NCBI GenBank assembly: GCA_002733915.1
Contig: NVXN01000006.1
Location: forward strand, 68,045-79,770
Length of the DNA stretch: 11,726 bases
Origin: Aequorivita sp.
GTDB lineage: Bacteria; Bacteroidota; Bacteroidia; Flavobacteriales; Flavobacteriaceae
Direction of reading: 5' to 3'
Position 1 is the first letter of the stretch. Each line of letters begins with the position of its first letter. Below are positions 1,794-11,004 of this stretch, piece after piece. A model generated the notes under the pieces. The model was not told the DNA's origin. It made no database searches and saw nothing but the letters and a program-made list of their open reading frames with translations. The position numbers and the translations under genes were made by a program.

Positions 1794-3800
1794 ATGAAAG
1801 CTGAAACCACCCAACATATTTTCTTTGATTATAATAGAAAAAACCTTAACGAAGAAACTTTATTGACACTCTATCGCGGTATGCTAAAGCCTCGGATGAT
1901 AGAAGAAAAAATGTTGATTCTGCTACGGCAAGGAAAGGTTTCAAAATGGTTCAGCGGAATAGGACAGGAAGCAATCTCAGTAGGAATTACAGCAGTTTTG
2001 GATAAAGATGAATACATTCTGCCAATGCATAGAAATTTAGCGGTATTCACGATGCGCGATATTCCTTTGAATCGCTTGTTTTCTCAATGGCAGGGAAAAG
2101 CGAATGGTTTTACCAAAGGCCGCGATAGAAGTTTTCATTTTGGTACCCAGGAGTTCCACATTGTTGGAATGATTTCACATTTGGGACCACAATTTGGCGT
2201 TGCCGATGGGATAGCATTGGCAAACAAACTAAAACAAAACAATAAGGTATGTGCGGTATTTACTGGCGAAGGCGGAACCAGCGAAGGTGATATTCATGAA
2301 GCACTAAATGTGGCTTCCGTTTGGCAGCTTCCAGTACTTTTCTGTGTTGAGAATAACGGCTATGGTTTGTCAACCCCAACCAATGAGCAATATAATTGCG
2401 AACATATTGCTGACCGTGGGAAAGGTTACGGAATGGAATCCCATATTATTGAGGGCAATAATATTTTGGAGGTTTACATAAAATTGAAAGATTTGGTAGA
2501 AAGCATGCGAACCAATCCGCGGCCGATTCTTTTGGAATTCAAAACCTTTAGAATGCGTGGCCATGAAGAAGCAAGTGGCACTAAGTATGTGCCCACTGAA
2601 TTAATTGATGAATGGGGCTTGCGCGATCCACTTTTAAATTTTGAAACCTATTTGTTGAACGAAGGAGTGCTTTCCGAGGAAAAAATACAAGAGTTTAAAA
2701 GTGAGTTTAAACAGGAAATAGATGAAAACCTTGACATTGCTTTTGCCGAACCGAAGATAGAATTCAACGAAACAAACGAATTAAATGATGTTTACAAAAC
2801 ATTTGATTATAAAGAAGTTAGCGTAAATTCGGCTAAAGAAAATATTCGCTTGATCGATGCCATTTCCCAAGGCTTGAAACAATCTATGGAGCGCCATGGC
2901 AATCTTGTGATTATGGGGCAGGACGTGGCGGAATACGGGGGTGTTTTTAAAATTACGGAAGGTTTTGTGGAGCAATTTGGCAAAGAACGCGTTCGCAATA
3001 CCCCTATTTGTGAGTCCGCAATTGTCTCTGCGGCGATGGGGCTTTCCATTAATGGTTTTAAAGCTGTTGTGGAAATGCAGTTTGCAGATTTTGTTACTTC
3101 AGGCTTCAACCCAATCATAAATTATCTCGCAAAAAGCCATTACCGCTGGAACGAAAAAGCCGATGTAGTAGTGCGTATGCCCTGTGGCGCAGGAGTGGGA
3201 GCGGGGCCATTTCATAGTCAGACTAACGAGGCTTGGTTTACACATACGCCTGGACTAAAAGTAGTTTACCCGGCTTTCCCCTACGATGCCAAAGGTTTAT
3301 TAGCAACCAGTATTGAAGACCCCAACCCTGTAATGTTTTTTGAACACAAAGCGCTCTATAGAAGCATACGCCAAGATGTGCCGACAGATTATTATACATT
3401 ACCGCTCGGGAAAGCCTCGCTTTTAAAAGAAGGAAAAGACGTTACTATTATTACTTATGGAGCAGGGGTGCATTGGGCATTGGAAACGCTGGAGCAAAAT
3501 CCAGACATTCAAGCAGATCTTATTGATTTAAGGACACTGATTCCTTTGGACACCGAAACAATATACACATCGGTAAAGAAAACTGGAAAGGTTATTATTC
3601 TTCAAGAAGATTCTATGTTTGGGGGGATAGCTTCGGATATCTCGGCCTTAATAATGGAAAATTGTTTTGAAGATTTAGATGCGCCAGTAAAAAGGGTTGC
3701 CAGTCTAGAAACTCCGATTCCCTTTGCAGCAAATTTAGAAGCTGGCTACCTTAGTAAGGAAAAATTCAAAAAAATCCTATTGGAATTGCTGTCTTACTAA
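1794..3800 (+). CDS. Fused E1 alpha/beta subunit of a branched-chain-type 2-oxoacid dehydrogenase
   Basis: The protein has 668 residues. Residues 15-325 are an E1 alpha domain with the thiamine-diphosphate motif running from GEG (158-160) to ENN (186-188); the GEG..SEGD form resembles branched-chain rather than pyruvate E1. Residues 350-668 are a complete E1 beta domain with the cofactor-contacting Glu407 (TPICES) and the MQFADF segment. Both halves of the heterotetramer are thus on one chain. The enzyme decarboxylates a 2-oxoacid and passes the acyl group to a lipoyl-E2; no E2 or E3 gene is nearby, so partners must be encoded elsewhere. The frame stays open upstream to an ATG at 1404, but that stretch is antisense to the oxygenase; MKAETTQ at 1794, just after the promoter box, is the sensible start. 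The branched-chain substrate is inferred. Confidence 0.92.
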   Translation: MKAETTQHIFFDYNRKNLNEETLLTLYRGMLKPRMIEEKMLILLRQGKVSKWFSGIGQEAISVGITAVLDKDEYILPMHRNLAVFTMRDIPLNRLFSQWQGKANGFTKGRDRSFHFGTQEFHIVGMISHLGPQFGVADGIALANKLKQNNKVCAVFTGEGGTSEGDIHEALNVASVWQLPVLFCVENNGYGLSTPTNEQYNCEHIADRGKGYGMESHIIEGNNILEVYIKLKDLVESMRTNPRPILLEFKTFRMRGHEEASGTKYVPTELIDEWGLRDPLLNFETYLLNEGVLSEEKIQEFKSEFKQEIDENLDIAFAEPKIEFNETNELNDVYKTFDYKEVSVNSAKENIRLIDAISQGLKQSMERHGNLVIMGQDVAEYGGVFKITEGFVEQFGKERVRNTPICESAIVSAAMGLSINGFKAVVEMQFADFVTSGFNPIINYLAKSHYRWNEKADVVVRMPCGAGVGAGPFHSQTNEAWFTHTPGLKVVYPAFPYDAKGLLATSIEDPNPVMFFEHKALYRSIRQDVPTDYYTLPLGKASLLKEGKDVTIITYGAGVHWALETLEQNPDIQADLIDLRTLIPLDTETIYTSVKKTGKVIILQEDSMFGGIASDISALIMENCFEDLDAPVKRVASLETPIPFAANLEAGYLSKEKFKKILLELLSY

Positions 3801-4585: not shown

Positions 4586-5293
4586 ATGAAAAAAATTTTT
4601 AAACAAACCGCACTAGTTGTATTAGCATTTACTTTTGTTATTAGCCTAACAAGCTGTGAAGCCACGCGAAACGCCAATAACAAACAGAAAGGTGCCGTTA
4701 TAGGTGCTACTAGTGGTGCCGTATTGGGCGCAATACTTGGTAACAATATTGGAAAAGGCGGAAACGGAGAACTAGGCGCTGTAATTGGTGGTGTAGTTGG
4801 TGGAGGTGCCGGTGTATTGATTGGTGCTAAAATGGACAAGCAAGCACAAAAAATAGAACAGGAAATTCCTGGGGCACAAGTAGAGAGAGTGGATGAAGGT
4901 ATTGTTGTAACTTTTGATGAAAACAGTGGTGTGTATTTTGATACTGCTAAATACAACATTAACCCTGCCTCACAAGCCACACTTGATAAACTTGCCAACG
5001 TTTTGAAGGAATATCCAGATACCAATGTCCTTGTGGTAGGACATACTGATAGTGTTGGTTCCGATGAAATGAATATGACACTCTCAAAAAATAGAGCACA
5101 ATCCGTTACAAATTATTTGGTCCAAAACAAAGGATTAAGTGCCGGTAGGTTTACTACCAATTGGTATGGCGAAACCGCTCCAGTAGCTGATAATTCAACT
5201 GCCCAAGGTCGTGCTAAAAACCGACGTGTAAACCTTGCGATTGTTCCAAATGAAAAGATGAAACAAGAAGCAAAACAACAAGCTGGCGAATAA
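4586..5293 (+). CDS. OmpA-family lipoprotein with glycine zipper (YiaD-like)
   Basis: The protein has 235 residues. The signal peptide ends in the lipobox LTSC, with lipidated Cys24. Residues 36-82 are a glycine zipper (repeated GAVIGATSGAVLGAILG and GGVVGGGAG patterns) expected to form packed membrane-inserting hairpins. Residues 115-220 form an OmpA C-terminal domain with the peptidoglycan-binding signature: GHTDSVG (Asp155), LSKNRAQSV (Arg170) and a KNRRVNL segment (about 211-217). The protein should anchor the outer membrane to the cell wall, as YiaD-like proteins do. The tail KMKQEAKQQAGE is hydrophilic and probably disordered. It follows the lipocalin-like lipoprotein by 5 bases and is followed by a strong terminator, so it closes this envelope-gene group. 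Confidence 0.92.
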   Translation: MKKIFKQTALVVLAFTFVISLTSCEATRNANNKQKGAVIGATSGAVLGAILGNNIGKGGNGELGAVIGGVVGGGAGVLIGAKMDKQAQKIEQEIPGAQVERVDEGIVVTFDENSGVYFDTAKYNINPASQATLDKLANVLKEYPDTNVLVVGHTDSVGSDEMNMTLSKNRAQSVTNYLVQNKGLSAGRFTTNWYGETAPVADNSTAQGRAKNRRVNLAIVPNEKMKQEAKQQAGE

Positions 5294-5310: not shown

Positions 5311-5345
5311 AAAAATCCCGTTCCATTATTTGGGCGGGATTTTTT
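5311..5345 (+). terminator. Intrinsic terminator after the OmpA-family gene
   Basis: A perfect 10-bp stem (AAAAATCCCG pairing with CGGGATTTTT) encloses a 14-base loop and runs into a T-rich tail (TTTTTTAG). The flanking A-run means it may also work on the opposite strand. It lies 17 bases after the OmpA-family stop and ends only about 15 bases before the next ATG at 5361, leaving little room for a separate promoter for the polyketide operon. Confidence 0.85.
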
Positions 5346-5360
5346 AGTTTTAGACTATCA

Positions 5361-6488
5361 ATGATACATACACAAAAATGGGATGTTATAATAATAGGAG
5401 GTGGACTCGCAGGTCTTGTCACAGCCTTACATCTTTCCCAAAATAAAATCAAAGTTTGTTTAATTGAAAAAAATAAATACCCCAACCACAAGGTTTGTGG
5501 TGAATATGTAAGTAACGAAATACTGCCCTATCTAAAACTCCTTGGAATCAATCCCTTGTCTGAAGGCGCTAAACAAATTTCTAAATTTCAAATAACCGAT
5601 ACACAGGGCAATCCCATCACAGCACAATTACCTCTTGGCGGCTTTGGCATAAGCCGTTATACGTTTGACAATCTACTTTATGAAGCGATTCGCAGTAAAG
5701 TTGATATAATTTTTGATACTGCAGAAAAAGTATTTTTTAAGGAGAATCTATTTCAGGTTAAAACCCAAAATAAAAAAAGTTTAGAAGGAAATTTAGTAGT
5801 TGGAGCATTTGGAAAAAGGTCAAATATAGACTCATTTTTGAACAGAAAATTTATGGGTCAAAACTCACCCTGGCTTGCTGTAAAAGCACATTATGAATAT
5901 GAATTCGCGGAAGACACCGTTGCGTTGCACAACTTTAATGGAGGGTATTGCGGTTTGAGCAAAACTGAAACCGGAGCCGTAAATGCCTGTTATTTGGCAA
6001 CATTCAAGTCTTTTAAAAAATATGGAGGTATCGAGGCTTTTCAAAAAAAGGAGCTTTCAAAAAATCCTTTTTTGAATAAATTTTTCAATAACGCAAAACC
6101 CCTTTTTGATAAACCATTGACCATTAGCCAAATATCGTTTCAAGAAAAAAAACCAGTGGAAAACCATATATTTATGGTTGGTGACAGTGCAGGGCTCATC
6201 CATCCTCTTTGTGGAAATGGTATGGCAATGGCTATAAGAAGCGCACAAATTTTTTCGGAAATATATATTGAAGCCTATCATAATGAAAAATTGGACAAAA
6301 AGACTATGGAGGAAAAATATAAAGCTCAATGGCAGAGCGAATTTGAGGAAAGATTAAAAACGGGAAGATTCATTCAGAAATTATTAATGAATCCTTTTGC
6401 ATCAAAACTTGGCTTTGCAATGGTAAAGACTTTTCCGTCTTTAGTTCCAATGATTATTGAAAAAACACACGGCAGCCCATCCAAATGA
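5361..6488 (+). CDS. FAD-dependent oxidoreductase, geranylgeranyl-reductase-like, in the type III PKS operon
   Basis: The protein has 375 residues. An N-terminal Rossmann FAD site has GGGLAG (13-18) and the ribose-binding Glu36 (LIEKN). A KVCGEYVS segment (44-51) is typical of the geranylgeranyl-reductase-like branch of the PHBH/UbiH flavoprotein superfamily. The second FAD motif GDSAG begins at residue 274 and continues HPLCGNGMAMAI. Members reduce isolated double bonds or hydroxylate aromatic rings. In this setting a tailoring role on the polyketide product is likely: ring hydroxylation, or reduction of a polyene chain. Its stop overlaps the methyltransferase start (ATGA), indicating translational coupling. 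No signal peptide is visible, so it is cytoplasmic, possibly membrane-associated. It is the first gene of the operon, starting directly after a terminator. The exact reaction is not determinable. Confidence 0.88.
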   Translation: MIHTQKWDVIIIGGGLAGLVTALHLSQNKIKVCLIEKNKYPNHKVCGEYVSNEILPYLKLLGINPLSEGAKQISKFQITDTQGNPITAQLPLGGFGISRYTFDNLLYEAIRSKVDIIFDTAEKVFFKENLFQVKTQNKKSLEGNLVVGAFGKRSNIDSFLNRKFMGQNSPWLAVKAHYEYEFAEDTVALHNFNGGYCGLSKTETGAVNACYLATFKSFKKYGGIEAFQKKELSKNPFLNKFFNNAKPLFDKPLTISQISFQEKKPVENHIFMVGDSAGLIHPLCGNGMAMAIRSAQIFSEIYIEAYHNEKLDKKTMEEKYKAQWQSEFEERLKTGRFIQKLLMNPFASKLGFAMVKTFPSLVPMIIEKTHGSPSK

Positions 6489-7204
6489 TAACCTTCAGCA
6501 ACAAACATAGATCTGAACAGGAGGAAATAATGGATTCCAAAGATTTTCGAGGAGAAGAGATGAAAAAACTATTGGACGACCTCAAAACAGTTAACAAATG
6601 GCTTGGCGGAAACAAGATAACAATTGACGGTATCCAAAAACTATTACAAAACCATTCCAAGTCTGACAAGGTAAGAATTTTGGACATTGGGTGTGGCGAT
6701 GGTGAATTACTTAGGAAGTGTGCCGATTTTGGACAACAAAATAATTACAATTTTGAATTTATTGGAATTGATTTTAATGCTAATATTTTAAAATATGCAA
6801 AAAAACGAAGCGAGAATTATCCAAATATAAAATTTCAAAAAGTTGATGTTTTTTTGGAAGAAAATTTAATTCCAAATTGCGATATTGCAGTATGCACTTT
6901 GTTTTTGCATCATTTCAATACCGAAGAGATTGAAAATCTTTTAAAAAAAATAATCCAGAAAGTCAATGTTGGAATAGTAATAAATGATCTGCATAGAAGC
7001 AAACAAGCGTTCAACCTTTTTAAAATCGTGAGTGCGGTGTTTTTAAAAACCGTAACCGCAAGCCACGACGGATTGGTTTCTATTGCGAAAGGTTTTAAAA
7101 AGGATGAATTAAAAAAAATATCAAAACAAATCCCAAATCAAAAGAGTGAAATTCAATGGCGCTGGGCTTACCGATACCAATGGATGCTCAAAAAAAATTT
7201 ATGA
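6485..7204 (+). CDS. Class I SAM-dependent methyltransferase in the type III PKS operon
   Basis: The protein has 239 residues. SAM motif I is LDIGCGDG (66-73), the acidic residue after strand 2 is Asp96 (IGIDFN), and an LFLHHF segment (139-144) and VINDLHRS segment (165-172) follow. This order fits a UbiE/Ubi-like small-molecule methyltransferase, probably acting on a phenolic oxygen or ring carbon. I chose the ATG at 6485, which overlaps the upstream stop, because the first 20 residues contain an RS..EEIMD stretch that I recall as conserved in this type. The alternative ATG at 6530 has an unusually good AGGAGG five bases upstream, so a shorter form of 224 residues cannot be excluded. Its own stop overlaps the polyketide synthase start by 4 bases. 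The position between flavoenzyme and synthase argues for polyketide tailoring. Confidence 0.88.
   Translation: MITFSNKHRSEQEEIMDSKDFRGEEMKKLLDDLKTVNKWLGGNKITIDGIQKLLQNHSKSDKVRILDIGCGDGELLRKCADFGQQNNYNFEFIGIDFNANILKYAKKRSENYPNIKFQKVDVFLEENLIPNCDIAVCTLFLHHFNTEEIENLLKKIIQKVNVGIVINDLHRSKQAFNLFKIVSAVFLKTVTASHDGLVSIAKGFKKDELKKISKQIPNQKSEIQWRWAYRYQWMLKKNL
6519..6532 (+). promoter_or_regulatory. Strong Shine-Dalgarno-like sequence before an internal in-frame ATG
   Basis: AGGAGG (6519-6524) stands five bases before an in-frame ATG (6530-6532) inside the methyltransferase gene. Genes of Bacteroidota rarely use Shine-Dalgarno pairing, and no other gene in the window has such a sequence. It may be a real alternative start, or just the codons for Gln-Glu-Glu in a conserved N-terminal segment. 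It decides between a 239- and a 224-residue protein. Confidence 0.4.
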
Positions 7205-8253
7205 GTGTAAAGATAACCACGGTGGCAAAACAACTGCCCCAATATAGTCGAAAAACTGAAGAAGTCATACCTTTCGTAAAGCAATGGATGCACCAGCAAG
7301 AAAGCCGATTTCAACGAAAAGTGATTAAGATTTTTGAAGGAGCTGGGGTAGACAAACGATATTCCATTATGGATCCCGTTGAGGTATTTACAAATACAAG
7401 TTTTGAAAAACGCAATGCTATTTACGCTCGCGAAATCACAAAGTTGGGCAAATTGTGTCTTCAAAATGCACTCGATAAAGCAAGCTGGAAGCCTACTGAC
7501 ATAGATTATATTATAACCGTGAGTTGCACAGGAATTATGATTCCTTCCGTAGATGCTTATTTGATTAACGAACTGAAGATGAGGCAAGATATTGTGCGCC
7601 TTCCCGTAACCGAAATGGGCTGTGCCGCTGGAATTTCGGGAATAATTTATGCCAATAACTTTTTAAAGGCCAATCCTGGCAAACGTGCTGCGGTTATTGC
7701 TTTAGAAGCGCCCACGGCTACGTTTCAACTGGAGGATTTTTCAATGGTAAATATTGTTAGTGCCGCAATTTTTGGCGATGGTGCTGCTTGTGTTTTAATG
7801 TCTTCACACGAAGAGGACGATGGTCCTGAAATACTCGCAGAAGAAATGTACCATTTTTATGATGCTACAGATATGATGGGCTTTAAACTTGTAAATACTG
7901 GCCTTCAGATGATACTAGACAAAGCTGTTCCAGAAAAAATAGCAGAACATTTTTCAGCAATTGTACATCCCTTTTTAAAGAAAAACAATGTAAACATCCA
8001 AGATATCGATCATCTTATTTTTCATCCGGGAGGAAGAAAAATAATTGAAACAGTAGAAGATTTATTTGGAAGTTTAGGCAAAAACATAGATGATACCAAA
8101 GAAGTACTTAAATTGTATGGCAATATGAGCAGCGCAACTGTACTATACGTTTTGGAGCGTTTTATGGACAAAAAGCCCCAAAAGGGCAATTTGGGTTTGA
8201 TGTTAAGCTTTGGTCCCGGATTTTCGGCCCAACGTGTATTACTGAAGTTTTAA
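7201..8253 (+). CDS. Type III polyketide synthase (chalcone/stilbene synthase family)
   Basis: The protein has 350 residues. The catalytic triad is intact: Cys141 (TEMGCAAGI), His275 (FHPGGRKII) and Asn308 (YGNMSSATV). The C-terminal FGPGFSAQ (337-344) corresponds to the GFGPG loop of the family. The HPGG and NMSSAT contexts separate it from KAS III, which shares the same triad. Such homodimers condense malonyl-CoA onto an acyl starter and cyclise the poly-beta-keto chain to resorcinols, pyrones, phloroglucinols or naphthols; the product cannot be told from sequence. The start at 7201 overlaps the methyltransferase stop (ATGA); an upstream in-frame ATG at 7156 would add 15 residues read out of frame from the methyltransferase coding region and is rejected. 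A dedicated SDR, dehydratase, ketosynthase and ACP follow immediately, suggesting an acyl-ACP or derived acyl starter (inference). Confidence 0.93.
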   Translation: MSVKITTVAKQLPQYSRKTEEVIPFVKQWMHQQESRFQRKVIKIFEGAGVDKRYSIMDPVEVFTNTSFEKRNAIYAREITKLGKLCLQNALDKASWKPTDIDYIITVSCTGIMIPSVDAYLINELKMRQDIVRLPVTEMGCAAGISGIIYANNFLKANPGKRAAVIALEAPTATFQLEDFSMVNIVSAAIFGDGAACVLMSSHEEDDGPEILAEEMYHFYDATDMMGFKLVNTGLQMILDKAVPEKIAEHFSAIVHPFLKKNNVNIQDIDHLIFHPGGRKIIETVEDLFGSLGKNIDDTKEVLKLYGNMSSATVLYVLERFMDKKPQKGNLGLMLSFGPGFSAQRVLLKF

Positions 8254-8255
8254 CT

Positions 8256-9029
8256 ATGGATGAATTTAAAGATCAATGGGCATTGATACTTGGAGGCAGT
8301 AGTGGCTTAGGGCTTGCCACCGCAAAAAAACTTGCTTCAAAGGGAATGAATATTTGTATCGTCCATCGTGATCGCAAAAGTAATTTGAAAGAATTTAAAA
8401 AAGCAGTAGAGCAGATGGAATCTTGGGGAAATGTGGTGAAAACTTTCAATAAAGATGCTTTGAAAGAAGAAGTTAGAAAAGAAATCATCAGCCAAATTCC
8501 AAAACATAGTGTTAAGATTTTACTTCACAGTATTGCAAAGGGCAGTTTAAAAATGATGAATAGTCCGAAACAAGAATTATTGTCAAAACATGATTTGGAT
8601 ATAACCATTCACGCTATGGCAACAAGCTGGTATGAATGGACCCAAACGTTGATTGCCCATAAAAGTTTTGCCGAAAAAGCACGAAATATCGCTTTTACCA
8701 GTGAAGGGAATACAAGAGTTTGGCCAGGCTATGCCGCCGTTTCCGCAGCAAAATCAGTACTGGAGGCTTTAATGCGAAATATGGCCGTTGCATTGGCCCC
8801 CTTGAAAATTGCAACAAATTGCATTCAAGCAGGCACTACGGAGACACCTTCTTTTTTAGCAATTCCCGGAAGTAAAAAATTATCTGAAATGGCCAAACTT
8901 CGAAATCCCCAAAATAGACTTACAAAACCTGAGGACGTAGCAAATGCGGTCTATTTGCTCTGCAAAAAAGAAGCCGATTGGATTAACGGAATAGTATTAA
9001 AAGTGGATGGGGGCGAAAGTTTGAGATAA
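8256..9029 (+). CDS. SDR oxidoreductase, divergent enoyl-ACP reductase-like
   Basis: The protein has 257 residues with a Rossmann fold: cofactor-binding GGSSGLG (13-19), an LHSIAKG strand-loop (90-96) and a C-terminal VDGGESLR. The catalytic pair is Tyr159 and Lys166 with six residues between (YAAVSAAK). That Y-x6-K spacing is the enoyl-ACP reductase (FabI/FabL) arrangement, not the YxxxK of ketoreductases. HSIA also resembles the FabI HSIG strand, while TSEGNTRVWPGY and the segment after Lys166 recall FabL. The extra FabI tyrosine ten residues before the catalytic Tyr is replaced by Ser149. It most likely reduces enoyl-ACP on the dedicated carrier protein using NAD(P)H; a ketoreductase role is possible because the operon has no other SDR. 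It starts 2 bases after the synthase stop. Confidence 0.82.
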   Translation: MDEFKDQWALILGGSSGLGLATAKKLASKGMNICIVHRDRKSNLKEFKKAVEQMESWGNVVKTFNKDALKEEVRKEIISQIPKHSVKILLHSIAKGSLKMMNSPKQELLSKHDLDITIHAMATSWYEWTQTLIAHKSFAEKARNIAFTSEGNTRVWPGYAAVSAAKSVLEALMRNMAVALAPLKIATNCIQAGTTETPSFLAIPGSKKLSEMAKLRNPQNRLTKPEDVANAVYLLCKKEADWINGIVLKVDGGESLR

Positions 9030-9036
9030 ATATAAA

Positions 9037-9477
9037 ATGGATTATCAATACATTATAGACCAGCTTCCATATTCCGAACCCTTTTTGTTTGTGGATGAGG
9101 TCCTTTCAGTTTCGGAAGAGCATATTTCGGGCACTTATATTTTCAAAAAAGACTTGTTTTTTTATGAGGGTCATTTTAAAGACAATCCAGTAACGCCGGG
9201 CGTAATACTTACGGAATGTATGGCACAGATTGGTCTGGTGTGTTTTGGTATTTATCTTTTAAAGGATGATATTTCTTCTGAAAAAATAAATTTTGCTTTA
9301 AGCAGCACAGAAATTGATTTTCTACTTCCGGTTTTTCCCGAAGAAAAAGTAAAAGTAGTTTCAGAAAAAATATATTATAGGTTTAATAAATTGAAATGTA
9401 AGGTAAAAATGCTAAATGCAAAAGACGAAACAATTGCAAAAGGCACCATAAGTGGAATGATTGTGAATAGAGATTAA
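9037..9477 (+). CDS. FabZ-like 3-hydroxyacyl-ACP dehydratase (hotdog fold)
   Basis: The protein has 146 residues, typical for FabZ. The N-terminal QLPYSEPFLFVDEV matches the FabZ LPHRYPFLLVDRV opening with Ser in place of His. The active site is conserved: His46 (YEGHFKDNPVTPG) and Glu60 (LTECMAQIG) are 14 apart, as in FabZ. It should dehydrate 3-hydroxyacyl-ACP to trans-2-enoyl-ACP in the cytoplasm. Seven bases separate it from the SDR and one base from the ketosynthase, so it belongs to the same transcript. It would be redundant with the housekeeping FabZ that any such genome must have, which supports a pathway-specific role. Hotdog thioesterases are a less likely alternative because the His/Glu pair and PG segment are those of dehydratases. 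Confidence 0.9.
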   Translation: MDYQYIIDQLPYSEPFLFVDEVLSVSEEHISGTYIFKKDLFFYEGHFKDNPVTPGVILTECMAQIGLVCFGIYLLKDDISSEKINFALSSTEIDFLLPVFPEEKVKVVSEKIYYRFNKLKCKVKMLNAKDETIAKGTISGMIVNRD

Positions 9478-9478
9478 A

Positions 9479-10750
9479 ATGAAGAAACGCGTTGTAATTA
9501 CGGGACTTGGTGTTGTTTCGCCAAATGGTGTTGGCATTTCAGCTTTTTCTGAAGCCATTAAAAAAGGTATTTCGGGTATTGCGTTTTTGCCTGAATTACG
9601 CGACCTCAATTTTTCTTGCCAATTAGGCGCAATCCCGAAAATTTCCGAAGAGAAAAAGCGTGAATATCTCTCAGACCTTCAACTTCGTAATTTCAACAGC
9701 AGTGGTATTTTGTACGGGGTAATTGCAGGAATGGACGCATTAAAAGATGCCAGAATTGAGCCTGCCACAACTGAAGAGGCTCCTCTTTGGGACTTAGGGA
9801 TTATATTCGGAACTGGTACAAGCGGTGTGGATAAATTTCGCGAAGCCATTTATAAAATTGATGATAAAAATGTGCGGAGGTTAGGTAGTACTTCAGTAGC
9901 ACAAACTATGGCGAGTGGCGTAAGTGCGTATCTCGGCGGGTTAATTGGTGCGGGAAATATGGTGACTGCAAATTCATCTGCCTGTGCTACAGGAACAGAA
10001 GCGCTATTAATGGGTTATGAACATATTGCCTTTGGAAAGGCAAAATTCATGCTTTGTGGCAGTACTAGCGATTCCGGCCCCTATATCTGGGGCGGTTTTG
10101 ACGCCATGAAAGTTACTACCTATAAATATAACGATGCTCCAAAAGGTATTGCGGGCCCCATGAGCGCAGACGCTAGTGGTTTTGTTCCAGGGAGTGGGGC
10201 AGGGGCATATTTGCTGGAATCCTTGGAGAGCGCACAACAAAGAGGCGCTACCATTTATGCCGAAATCCTTGGCGGGGCAGTAAACAATGGCGGGCAAAGA
10301 TGCGGTGGCAGTATGACTGCTCCCAATAGTCTGGCCATTCAAAAATGTATAAAAGATGCCTTGGAAGACTCAAATACCGAAGCTTGGGAAATTGATTATA
10401 TAAATGGGCATCTTACCGCTACCATTAAAGATCCTGATGAAATTGAAAACTGGAGCATTGCATTGAACCGAAAAGGAGATCGGTTTCCATTTATAAATTC
10501 ACTAAAGGGAATGGTGGGGCATTGTTTGGCCGCAAGTGGCAGTATAGAAATTGTTTCTGCCATTCTTCAACTTCACGAAGGGTTTGTTTTTCCGAATGTA
10601 AATTGTGAAAATCTGCATCCAAAAATAGCTTCTTTGATTTCTTCGGAGAAAATTTCGATGAAAATGCAAAAAACATCGTTACAAACCATTGCGAAGGCCA
10701 GCTTTGGTTTTGGTGATGTGAACGCATGTGCTATCTTTAAAAAAATTTAA
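9479..10750 (+). CDS. FabF-like beta-ketoacyl-ACP synthase, divergent clade
   Basis: The protein has 423 residues, full length for a KAS II-type enzyme. The catalytic residues are Cys169 (SSACATGTEA), His311 (NGHLTAT) and His348 with Lys343 (SLKGMVGH), so it should be a condensing enzyme rather than a chain-length factor. Two motifs differ from housekeeping FabF: the usual HGTST after the first His is HLTAT, and the C-terminal gatekeeper loop GFGGTN is GFGDVN (410-415). These changes line the acyl pocket and suggest an unusual substrate. It would extend acyl-ACP with malonyl-ACP on the ACP encoded 5 bases downstream. Secondary-metabolite KS enzymes of polyene or phenolic-lipid pathways are the likely relatives; I cannot place the clade without a tree. 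Confidence 0.92.
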   Translation: MKKRVVITGLGVVSPNGVGISAFSEAIKKGISGIAFLPELRDLNFSCQLGAIPKISEEKKREYLSDLQLRNFNSSGILYGVIAGMDALKDARIEPATTEEAPLWDLGIIFGTGTSGVDKFREAIYKIDDKNVRRLGSTSVAQTMASGVSAYLGGLIGAGNMVTANSSACATGTEALLMGYEHIAFGKAKFMLCGSTSDSGPYIWGGFDAMKVTTYKYNDAPKGIAGPMSADASGFVPGSGAGAYLLESLESAQQRGATIYAEILGGAVNNGGQRCGGSMTAPNSLAIQKCIKDALEDSNTEAWEIDYINGHLTATIKDPDEIENWSIALNRKGDRFPFINSLKGMVGHCLAASGSIEIVSAILQLHEGFVFPNVNCENLHPKIASLISSEKISMKMQKTSLQTIAKASFGFGDVNACAIFKKI

Positions 10751-10755
10751 AGTAC

Positions 10756-11004
10756 ATGACTTCGGAAGAAATATACACAAAACTTGAGCCTATCATCAAG
10801 ACTTACTTACCCGAGGATGTATCTGCCAATGAAATAAACCGCAAGAGTGATCTCACACGTGAATTAAACATAAATTCAGCGCATTTGGTCGATATAATTT
10901 TGGATATAGAAGATCTCTTCAATATTGAGTTTAAAAATGAAGATATGGAACAGCTTCGAAATGTGAATGATGCTATTCTGCTAATACAGCAAAAGACTTC
11001 TTAG
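10756..11004 (+). CDS. Acyl carrier protein of the type III PKS operon
   Basis: The protein has 82 residues with the four-helix ACP pattern. The phosphopantetheine attachment site is Ser41 in LNINSAHLVDIILDIED; housekeeping ACPs have DSL here, so Asp is replaced by Asn and Leu by Ala. Helix 2 (about 42-57) and the acidic DIEDLF stretch are otherwise typical. The N-terminal helix (about 3-18) ends at a YLPEDVSANEI loop. It should be made holo by a phosphopantetheinyl transferase encoded elsewhere and then carry the acyl chain for the SDR, dehydratase and ketosynthase. It is the last gene of the operon. The altered recognition motif suggests it is distinguished from the primary ACP by its partner enzymes (inference). 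Confidence 0.9.
   Translation: MTSEEIYTKLEPIIKTYLPEDVSANEINRKSDLTRELNINSAHLVDIILDIEDLFNIEFKNEDMEQLRNVNDAILLIQQKTS

What the first reader, a model, noticed from the sequence alone, without database searches (positions are those of the whole stretch)
5361..11004. Type III polyketide synthase fused at operon level to a private FAS-like cassette
Seven genes are packed with gaps of 1-7 bases or ATGA overlaps: flavoenzyme, methyltransferase, type III PKS, enoyl-reductase-like SDR, FabZ-like dehydratase, FabF-like KS and ACP. Seen directly: intact Cys-His-Asn in the PKS, Cys-His-His in the KS, the His/Glu pair in the dehydratase and Ser41 in the ACP. Known: type III PKSs normally take free acyl-CoA, but some (Azotobacter ArsB/ArsC fed by ArsA/ArsD) receive chains from a dedicated fatty-acid synthase. 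Inference: a discrete type II cassette builds a special acyl or polyenyl-ACP that primes the type III enzyme, giving a phenolic lipid, pyrone or quinone. I do not know a characterised flavobacterial pathway with exactly this set.
Basis: partly seen in the sequence, partly recalled or inferred. Interest (0 to 1): 0.78.

Follow-up and report, generated by a model that had tools for sequence, protein, structure and literature searches.

The report
Chain-building module beside phenol-lipid enzyme
A marine bacterium carries a seven-gene operon in which a small private fatty-chain builder sits beside a ring-making type III polyketide synthase, probably to make an unusual phenol-, pyrone- or quinone-type lipid; related bacteria widely share the set, and what it makes is not known to me from print.

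Summary
Seven intact genes, with gaps of 1-7 bases or ATGA overlaps, encode a flavoenzyme, methyltransferase, type III PKS, FabL-like enoyl reductase, FabZ-like dehydratase, FabF-like KS and ACP, all under purifying selection. In a 395-genome phylum sample, 33 genomes carry this PKS subfamily (65-100% identity, next 37%) and the same 33 carry the KS beside it. The flavoenzyme-MT-PKS triad also occurs alone (6 of 36 distant PKS loci; none of the 36 has KS, DH or ACP nearby) and matches hidABC/srs/pkq phenolic-lipid operons in print. The other half, (SDR)-DH-KS-ACP(-PPTase), is exchangeable: its nearest unlinked relatives stand beside DarA/DarB dialkylresorcinol genes in two genomes and glycosyltransferase-like genes in three. 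Best reading: the module builds a special acyl-ACP that primes the type III PKS; MT and flavoenzyme then decorate the ring. Transfer and product are inferred. The Trp reported for resorcinol synthases is absent, so pyrone versus resorcinol is open. 44 of 46 Flavobacterium-named loci lack the enoyl reductase, predicting unsaturated tails there. antiSMASH surveys already count T3PKS clusters in this family, Aequorivita included; ten paper searches showed no characterised product. A new variant of a known kind.

The parts
5311..5344 (+). terminator-like hairpin after the OmpA-type gene, just upstream of the operon
   Evidence: 13-pair stem, then T tail; such sites overall are at chance frequency (12 found, 10.7 expected)
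5361..6488 (+). FMO: FAD-dependent oxidoreductase (UbiH / geranylgeranyl-reductase-like), probable ring hydroxylase
   Evidence: PF01494; GG-red-SF 94.5 bits (cut-off 158.8); model pLDDT 88.7; fold matches flavin halogenases, aromatic hydroxylases and a GGR-like protein; WxWxIP motif found in 0 of 94
6485..7204 (+). MT: SAM-dependent methyltransferase (PRK06202-like)
   Evidence: PF13847/PF13649; NF004851 116.5 bits (cut-off 243)
7201..8253 (+). type III polyketide synthase (350 aa)
   Evidence: start from ATGA overlap; model pLDDT 89.1, top folds PKS11 and CylI
8256..9029 (+). SDR: FabL-like enoyl-ACP reductase (Y-x6-K)
   Evidence: best NF005975 FabL 134.1 bits (cut-off 328); best PDB match enoyl-ACP reductase 3oic; Tyr/Lys invariant in 35 of 35
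9037..9477 (+). DH: FabZ-like hotdog 3-hydroxyacyl-ACP dehydratase
   Evidence: PF07977; His46/Glu60 invariant in 97 of 97
9479..10750 (+). KS: FabF-like 3-ketoacyl-ACP synthase, own group distinct from housekeeping-type FabF
   Evidence: Cys169/His311/His348 invariant in 92 of 92; trees
10756..11004 (+). ACP with I-N-S-(A/S) attachment motif instead of D-S-L
   Evidence: NF002150; Ser41 invariant in 90 of 90

Best explanation
The operon joins two modules. Module A (SDR, DH, KS, ACP, with a PPTase next door in many relatives) is a dissociated chain builder. The KS elongates a starter on the private ACP, a ketoreductase from elsewhere in the genome (presumably FabG) reduces the keto group, the DH dehydrates, and the SDR, where present, saturates, giving a special acyl-ACP (enoyl or polyenyl where the SDR is missing). 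Module B (type III PKS, MT, FMO) takes that acyl chain as starter, adds malonyl units, closes a resorcinol or pyrone ring, then methylates and hydroxylates it to a methoxy-phenol, methoxy-pyrone or quinone lipid. Shown: gene set, linkage, catalytic residues, purifying selection, modular exchange. Inferred: each reaction, delivery by ACP rather than CoA, and the product.
For: PKS subfamily and KS occur in the same 33 of 395 genomes, side by side. The order is kept in 97 loci; 8 of the 11 shorter ones are cut by a contig end. Gene distances co-vary (PKS vs KS r = 0.84, 0 of 999 permutations as high, 30 loci). The window genome (96% complete) shows two ACPs, two FabA/Z-type genes and two FabF-type KS; one of each is in this operon. 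SDR-DH-KS-ACP-PPTase relatives stand beside DarA/DarB in L172 and L173 with the ACP motif DLKINSANLVD that 33 of 90 PKS-linked ACPs also have. The triad occurs without the module in 6 of 36 distant PKS loci. Closest PKS folds are PKS11 and CylI, the latter solved with acyl and resorcinol ligands. Triad operons make alkylresorcinols or alkyl quinones elsewhere (PMC10896814 abstract and passages, PMC9927152 passages).
Against: No ketoreductase or malonyl transferase lies in the operon. No test of ACP delivery was possible. The Trp reported at ArsB position 281 has no counterpart: the window PKS has no Trp after residue 111, and over 97 loci the only Trp column beyond it is the last residue (21 of 97). 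The flavoenzyme fold is shared by hydroxylases, halogenases and a reductase-like protein, so its reaction is uncertain. The reported C. glutamicum expression of a planctomycete MT and FAD protein gave methylation, and the FAD protein's role remained unexplained. Two loci (L056, L080) have PKS, DH and KS but no recognisable ACP nearby.
Confidence: 0.66

Rival explanations
1. The two halves make two separate moieties, a type III ring lipid from ordinary acyl-CoA and a second acyl or polyene chain, later joined, as flexirubin joins a dialkylresorcinol to a polyene acid.
For: The module also occurs beside DarA/DarB in L172 and L173. Flexirubin is an ester of two parts (PMC3992019 abstract and passages).
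Against: No acyltransferase, ligase or thioesterase was recognised among the seven genes, and none recurs between or right after them in the locus orders printed (15 loci; some loci looked at).
Confidence: 0.15
2. The type III PKS closes a pyrone, not a resorcinol; the MT then makes a methoxy-alkylpyrone and the flavoenzyme oxidises or saturates the tail. This is compatible with feeding by the module, so its odds overlap with the best explanation.
For: The Trp linked to resorcinol cyclisation in ArsB and PkqA is missing in all 97 relatives. The flavoenzyme's best NCBIfam model is the geranylgeranyl-reductase subfamily, below cut-off. The top PDB sequence match is named alpha-pyrone synthesis PKS11.
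Against: The paper calls that residue a partial explanation; the triad composition matches resorcinol/quinone operons. CylI, a resorcinol former, is about as close in fold.
Confidence: 0.3
3. It is an ordinary alkylresorcinol operon of the hierridin type, and the neighbouring FAS genes are co-transcribed spare housekeeping copies that raise acyl supply.
For: Triad composition equals hidABC-type operons.
Against: The linked KSs and housekeeping-type FabFs of other genomes group apart; identity to other KSs is at most 37%. The ACP motif differs from the housekeeping DSL type. The module occurs with other partners.
Confidence: 0.1

Closest known systems
Hierridin operon hidABC and planctomycete three-gene operon (PMC8086630 passages; PMC10896814 abstract and passages)
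   Same: type III PKS with a methyltransferase and an FAD oxidoreductase in one operon; a C14 acyl-ACP starter is proposed for HidC
   Different: the passages seen describe no private KS, DH, ER or ACP; gene order differs (MT-oxidoreductase-PKS); sequence identity to the window not tested
srs / pkq operons of Streptomyces and Mycobacterium smegmatis (PMC9927152, PMC5916927: passages)
   Same: type III PKS, MT and hydroxylase/oxidoreductase; product class alkyl-resorcinol to benzoquinone
   Different: three genes; the window PKS lacks the Trp highlighted there
Azotobacter ars cluster (passages in PMC3098273 and PMC13291983; primary paper not held)
   Same: type III PKS linked to a dedicated fatty-acid synthase
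   Different: ars uses type I FAS/PKS genes and two type III PKSs; here discrete type II-like proteins and one PKS
Flexirubin / dialkylresorcinol clusters with DarA/DarB (PMC3992019 passages; L172, L173)
   Same: in two genomes a related SDR-DH-KS-ACP-PPTase module sits beside DarA/DarB
   Different: the window genome has no DarB match; 20 other DarB loci examined lack the module
Aequorivita CIP 111184 'T3pks-arylpolyene' antiSMASH cluster (PMC6139392 passages)
   Same: same genus; L007 is titled Aequorivita sp. CIP111184 and carries this operon
   Different: only named there, data not shown, no product in the passages seen

Membership tests
Type III polyketide synthase | CHS fold with Cys-His-Asn triad | tested here: met
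   97 of 97; TM-score 0.92 to PKS11
DpgA (dihydroxyphenylacetyl-CoA synthase) | score over the NCBIfam cut-off | tested here: not met
   171.7 bits against 425
hid/srs/pkq three-gene phenolic-lipid operon | type III PKS next to a methyltransferase and an FAD oxidoreductase | tested here: met
hid/srs/pkq three-gene phenolic-lipid operon | Trp at ArsB position 281, said to favour resorcinol | tested here: not met
   rule from PMC9927152; no Trp between residue 112 and the last residue in 97 loci; the exact aligned column was not established
hid/srs/pkq three-gene phenolic-lipid operon | alkylresorcinol or quinone product | not testable with these tools
   needs chemistry
Azotobacter ars system | multidomain type I FAS genes beside the PKS | tested here: not met
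   single-domain proteins only
Azotobacter ars system | direct acyl transfer from FAS to PKS | not testable with these tools
   needs purified proteins
Complete type II fatty acid synthase | KS, KR, DH, ER, ACP and malonyl transferase in the set | tested here: not met
   KS, DH, ACP and ER-like SDR only
Enoyl-ACP reductase FabL | score over the NCBIfam FabL cut-off | tested here: not met
   134.1 bits against 328; FabL-like only
Enoyl-ACP reductase of SDR type | Tyr-x6-Lys active site spacing (meaning recalled) and best solved match an enoyl-ACP reductase | tested here: met
Flexirubin / dialkylresorcinol cluster | DarA/DarB present | tested here: not met
   G000 has no DarB match at E<=1e-60; DarA not searched in G000
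Flavin-dependent halogenase | WxWxIP motif (recalled) | tested here: not met
   0 of 94; the fold is similar

The most novel reading that the evidence does not exclude
An exchangeable acyl-ACP module (SDR-DH-KS-ACP, often with its own PPTase) docks to two different families of ring-forming condensing enzymes, type III PKS and DarB. In this family it gives a type III PKS fed by a dedicated dissociated chain builder; absence of the enoyl reductase in most Flavobacterium loci switches the product from a saturated to a (poly)unsaturated phenolic lipid.
Probability: 0.5. Interest if true: 0.72.

Novelty: new variant of a known kind. Interest (0 to 1): 0.56.

Why it matters
T3PKS clusters are about a tenth of the biosynthetic clusters predicted in a 2,680-genome survey of Flavobacteriaceae (10.74%, PMC10734526 passages; how many are this gene set is not stated in the passages seen), and my ten paper searches gave no characterised product for it. 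The conserved module gives a concrete hypothesis (acyl-ACP priming of a type III PKS by discrete proteins), a natural comparison (loci with and without the enoyl reductase), and a link to dialkylresorcinol pathways. It may explain a widespread lipid or quinone of Flavobacteriaceae and offers separable parts for making phenolic lipids with chosen tails.

Tried and rejected
DpgA identity: rejected on score. Halogenase role for the flavoenzyme: fold similar but the recalled WxWxIP motif is absent in 94 of 94. Resorcinol versus pyrone: not settled; I could not place ArsB position 281 exactly because the primary paper is not held, so I only state that no Trp exists in the C-terminal half apart from the last residue in 21 of 97. 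Plasmid collection: 259 records with type III PKS hits, all under 60% identity (best in the 20 listed rows about 35%); the two neighbourhoods read carry an isoprenylcysteine-type methyltransferase and no KS or ACP. Rfam found nothing in the window. tRNA: none. SDR and PPTase presence: the tree needs at least 5 and 3 changes; the paired test was uninformative. A split housekeeping FabF, suspected, was dropped: the locus contains a run of unread letters.

Tree cautions: the first KS tree used 14 of 19 other KS loci, because my script lost 5, two of them on the contig of a DarB gene; rebuilt with those 5 and 10 KSs from DarB loci, the PKS-linked KSs still form one group (100/99), but that run reports long branches meeting, unsettled bootstrap, and no single group for the others. 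The PKS tree also has a long-branch warning, so I claim only that the cassette PKSs form one group, not which distant group is sister.

Only the best 80 of 217 genome contigs relatives were kept. Trees used 32 of 97 cassette loci; distance correlations used 30. Only 22 of 34 DarB places were looked at. Distant PKS loci were read about 8-9 kb to each side where the contig allowed.
Full report
What is there. The window is syntenic with Aequorivita (Flavobacteriaceae): the PKS is 93% identical to that of Aequorivita sp. UBA3180 and the upstream E1 dehydrogenase and OmpA-type genes are shared. Seven + strand genes run 5361-11004 with ATGA overlaps or gaps of 1-7 bases. I place the PKS start at 7201, not 7156. 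Pfam and NCBIfam give FAD_binding_3/GG-reductase-like, a PRK06202-like methyltransferase, type III PKS, a FabL-like SDR, a FabZ-like hotdog, a FabF-like KS and an ACP; none of the NCBIfam matches shown passes its curated cut-off, so all are divergent members.

Is it real and constrained? Against L004 and L006 every gene has omega of about 0.15 or less; against L005 two of seven dS values are saturated and the other five are 0.12 or less. Catalytic residues are invariant in relatives. A hairpin with a T tail stands 16 bases upstream, and promoter-like sites are near chance (40 found, 35.4 expected), so operon transcription is inferred from packing.

Distribution. The genome-contig scan found 217 encoding relatives; the best 80 were kept. 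Of the 11, eight are cut by a contig end; L018 lacks SDR and PPTase, and L056 and L080 lack a recognisable ACP though the contig continues. The genes are not always tightly packed in relatives: gaps up to 808 bases occur. SDR is present in 13 of 13 Aequorivita-titled loci and in 2 of 46 Flavobacterium-titled ones. In a phylum sample of 395 genomes, 174 have some type III PKS at E<=1e-20, but only 33 have this subfamily (65-100% identity; next 37%). KS at 58% or more occurs in the same 33 genomes, less than 2 kb from the PKS. Five more genomes have a KS at 48-52% that is not linked to a PKS; all five also have a distant type III PKS elsewhere.

The two halves have separate histories. Of 36 distant type III PKS loci examined (L117-L131, L134-L152, L177, L178), none has a KS, DH or ACP match nearby; 6 have both MT and FMO and 5 have MT alone. 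Conversely, the five unlinked KS genes lie in a free module. L172 and L173 have SDR-DH-KS-ACP-PPTase divergent from a dar operon; DarB is over the NCBIfam cut-off in both, and DarG and DarH in L172, where they were scanned (DarA is named from recall and its place before DarB; it hit no family). The L172 PPTase is just under its Pfam cut-off (24.9 against 25), the L173 one over it. L175 has SDR-DH-KS-ACP and L174/L176 have DH-KS-ACP, beside a GNAT-like gene and a family 2 glycosyltransferase; these domains were scanned in L175 only, and L174/L176 are judged by eye. The ACP motif DLKINSANLVD is the same in L172, L173 and 33 of 90 PKS-linked ACPs. Of 22 DarB loci looked at (of 34 places found), the module was present in 2; in the other 20 the best KS match is 23-32% (15 loci) or none is found (5 loci). 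So the module is exchangeable rather than a standard flexirubin part. In the KS trees the 32 PKS-linked KSs form one side of a branch (91/88; 100/99 with DarB-locus KSs added), as do the two dar-linked and the three glycosyltransferase-linked ones. 14 of the 33 genomes also have DarB; the window genome has no match.

The window genome. It shows two ACPs, two FabA/Z-type genes, two FabF-type KS (the second in two pieces around unread letters) and one PPTase; the second ACP, DH and KS are those in this operon. The ketoreductase needed for a chain-building cycle must come from elsewhere, presumably FabG; this was not tested.

Literature. Named-only reports exist: a T3pks-arylpolyene cluster in Aequorivita CIP 111184 with 69% identity to a Zobellia PKS (PMC6139392 passages), a type III PKS among the clusters of A. 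aurantiaca, which also has a flexirubin-like cluster (PMC10608841 passages), and family-wide counts (PMC7440613 and PMC10734526 passages). Ten answered paper searches showed no characterised product for this gene set in their listings or in the passages I read. The library lacks most subscription papers, and MIBiG was not available.

Verdict. Confirmed observation, partly supported interpretation, new variant of a known kind.

Noticed in passing
window 1797-3800: A fused alpha-beta 2-oxoacid dehydrogenase E1 gene lies upstream in Aequorivita and kin, while many Flavobacterium loci instead have acetolactate synthase, ketol-acid reductoisomerase and acetate-CoA ligase upstream (names from L021 scans); both sets could bear on branched-chain or acetyl starter supply, but neither is shown to belong.
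   Followed up: partly
L172, L173: A DarA/DarB dialkylresorcinol locus with a divergent SDR-DH-KS-ACP-PPTase module; 2 of 22 DarB loci examined have it.
   Followed up: partly
L174, L175, L176: A related (SDR)-DH-KS-ACP module beside a family 2 glycosyltransferase and a GNAT-like gene, in family f24; function unknown.
   Followed up: no
L056, L080: These two loci have FMO-MT-PKS-DH-KS but no recognisable ACP after the KS although the contig continues.
   Followed up: no
L056 (11079-11663) and L075 (9761-10345): A transposase-like gene (judged by eye, no family search) lies between the PKS and DH genes in two loci titled Polaribacter.
   Followed up: no
window 4586-5293: OmpA-family protein with a glycine zipper just upstream, preceded by a lipocalin-like protein; conserved beside the operon in Aequorivita and kin.
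   Followed up: no
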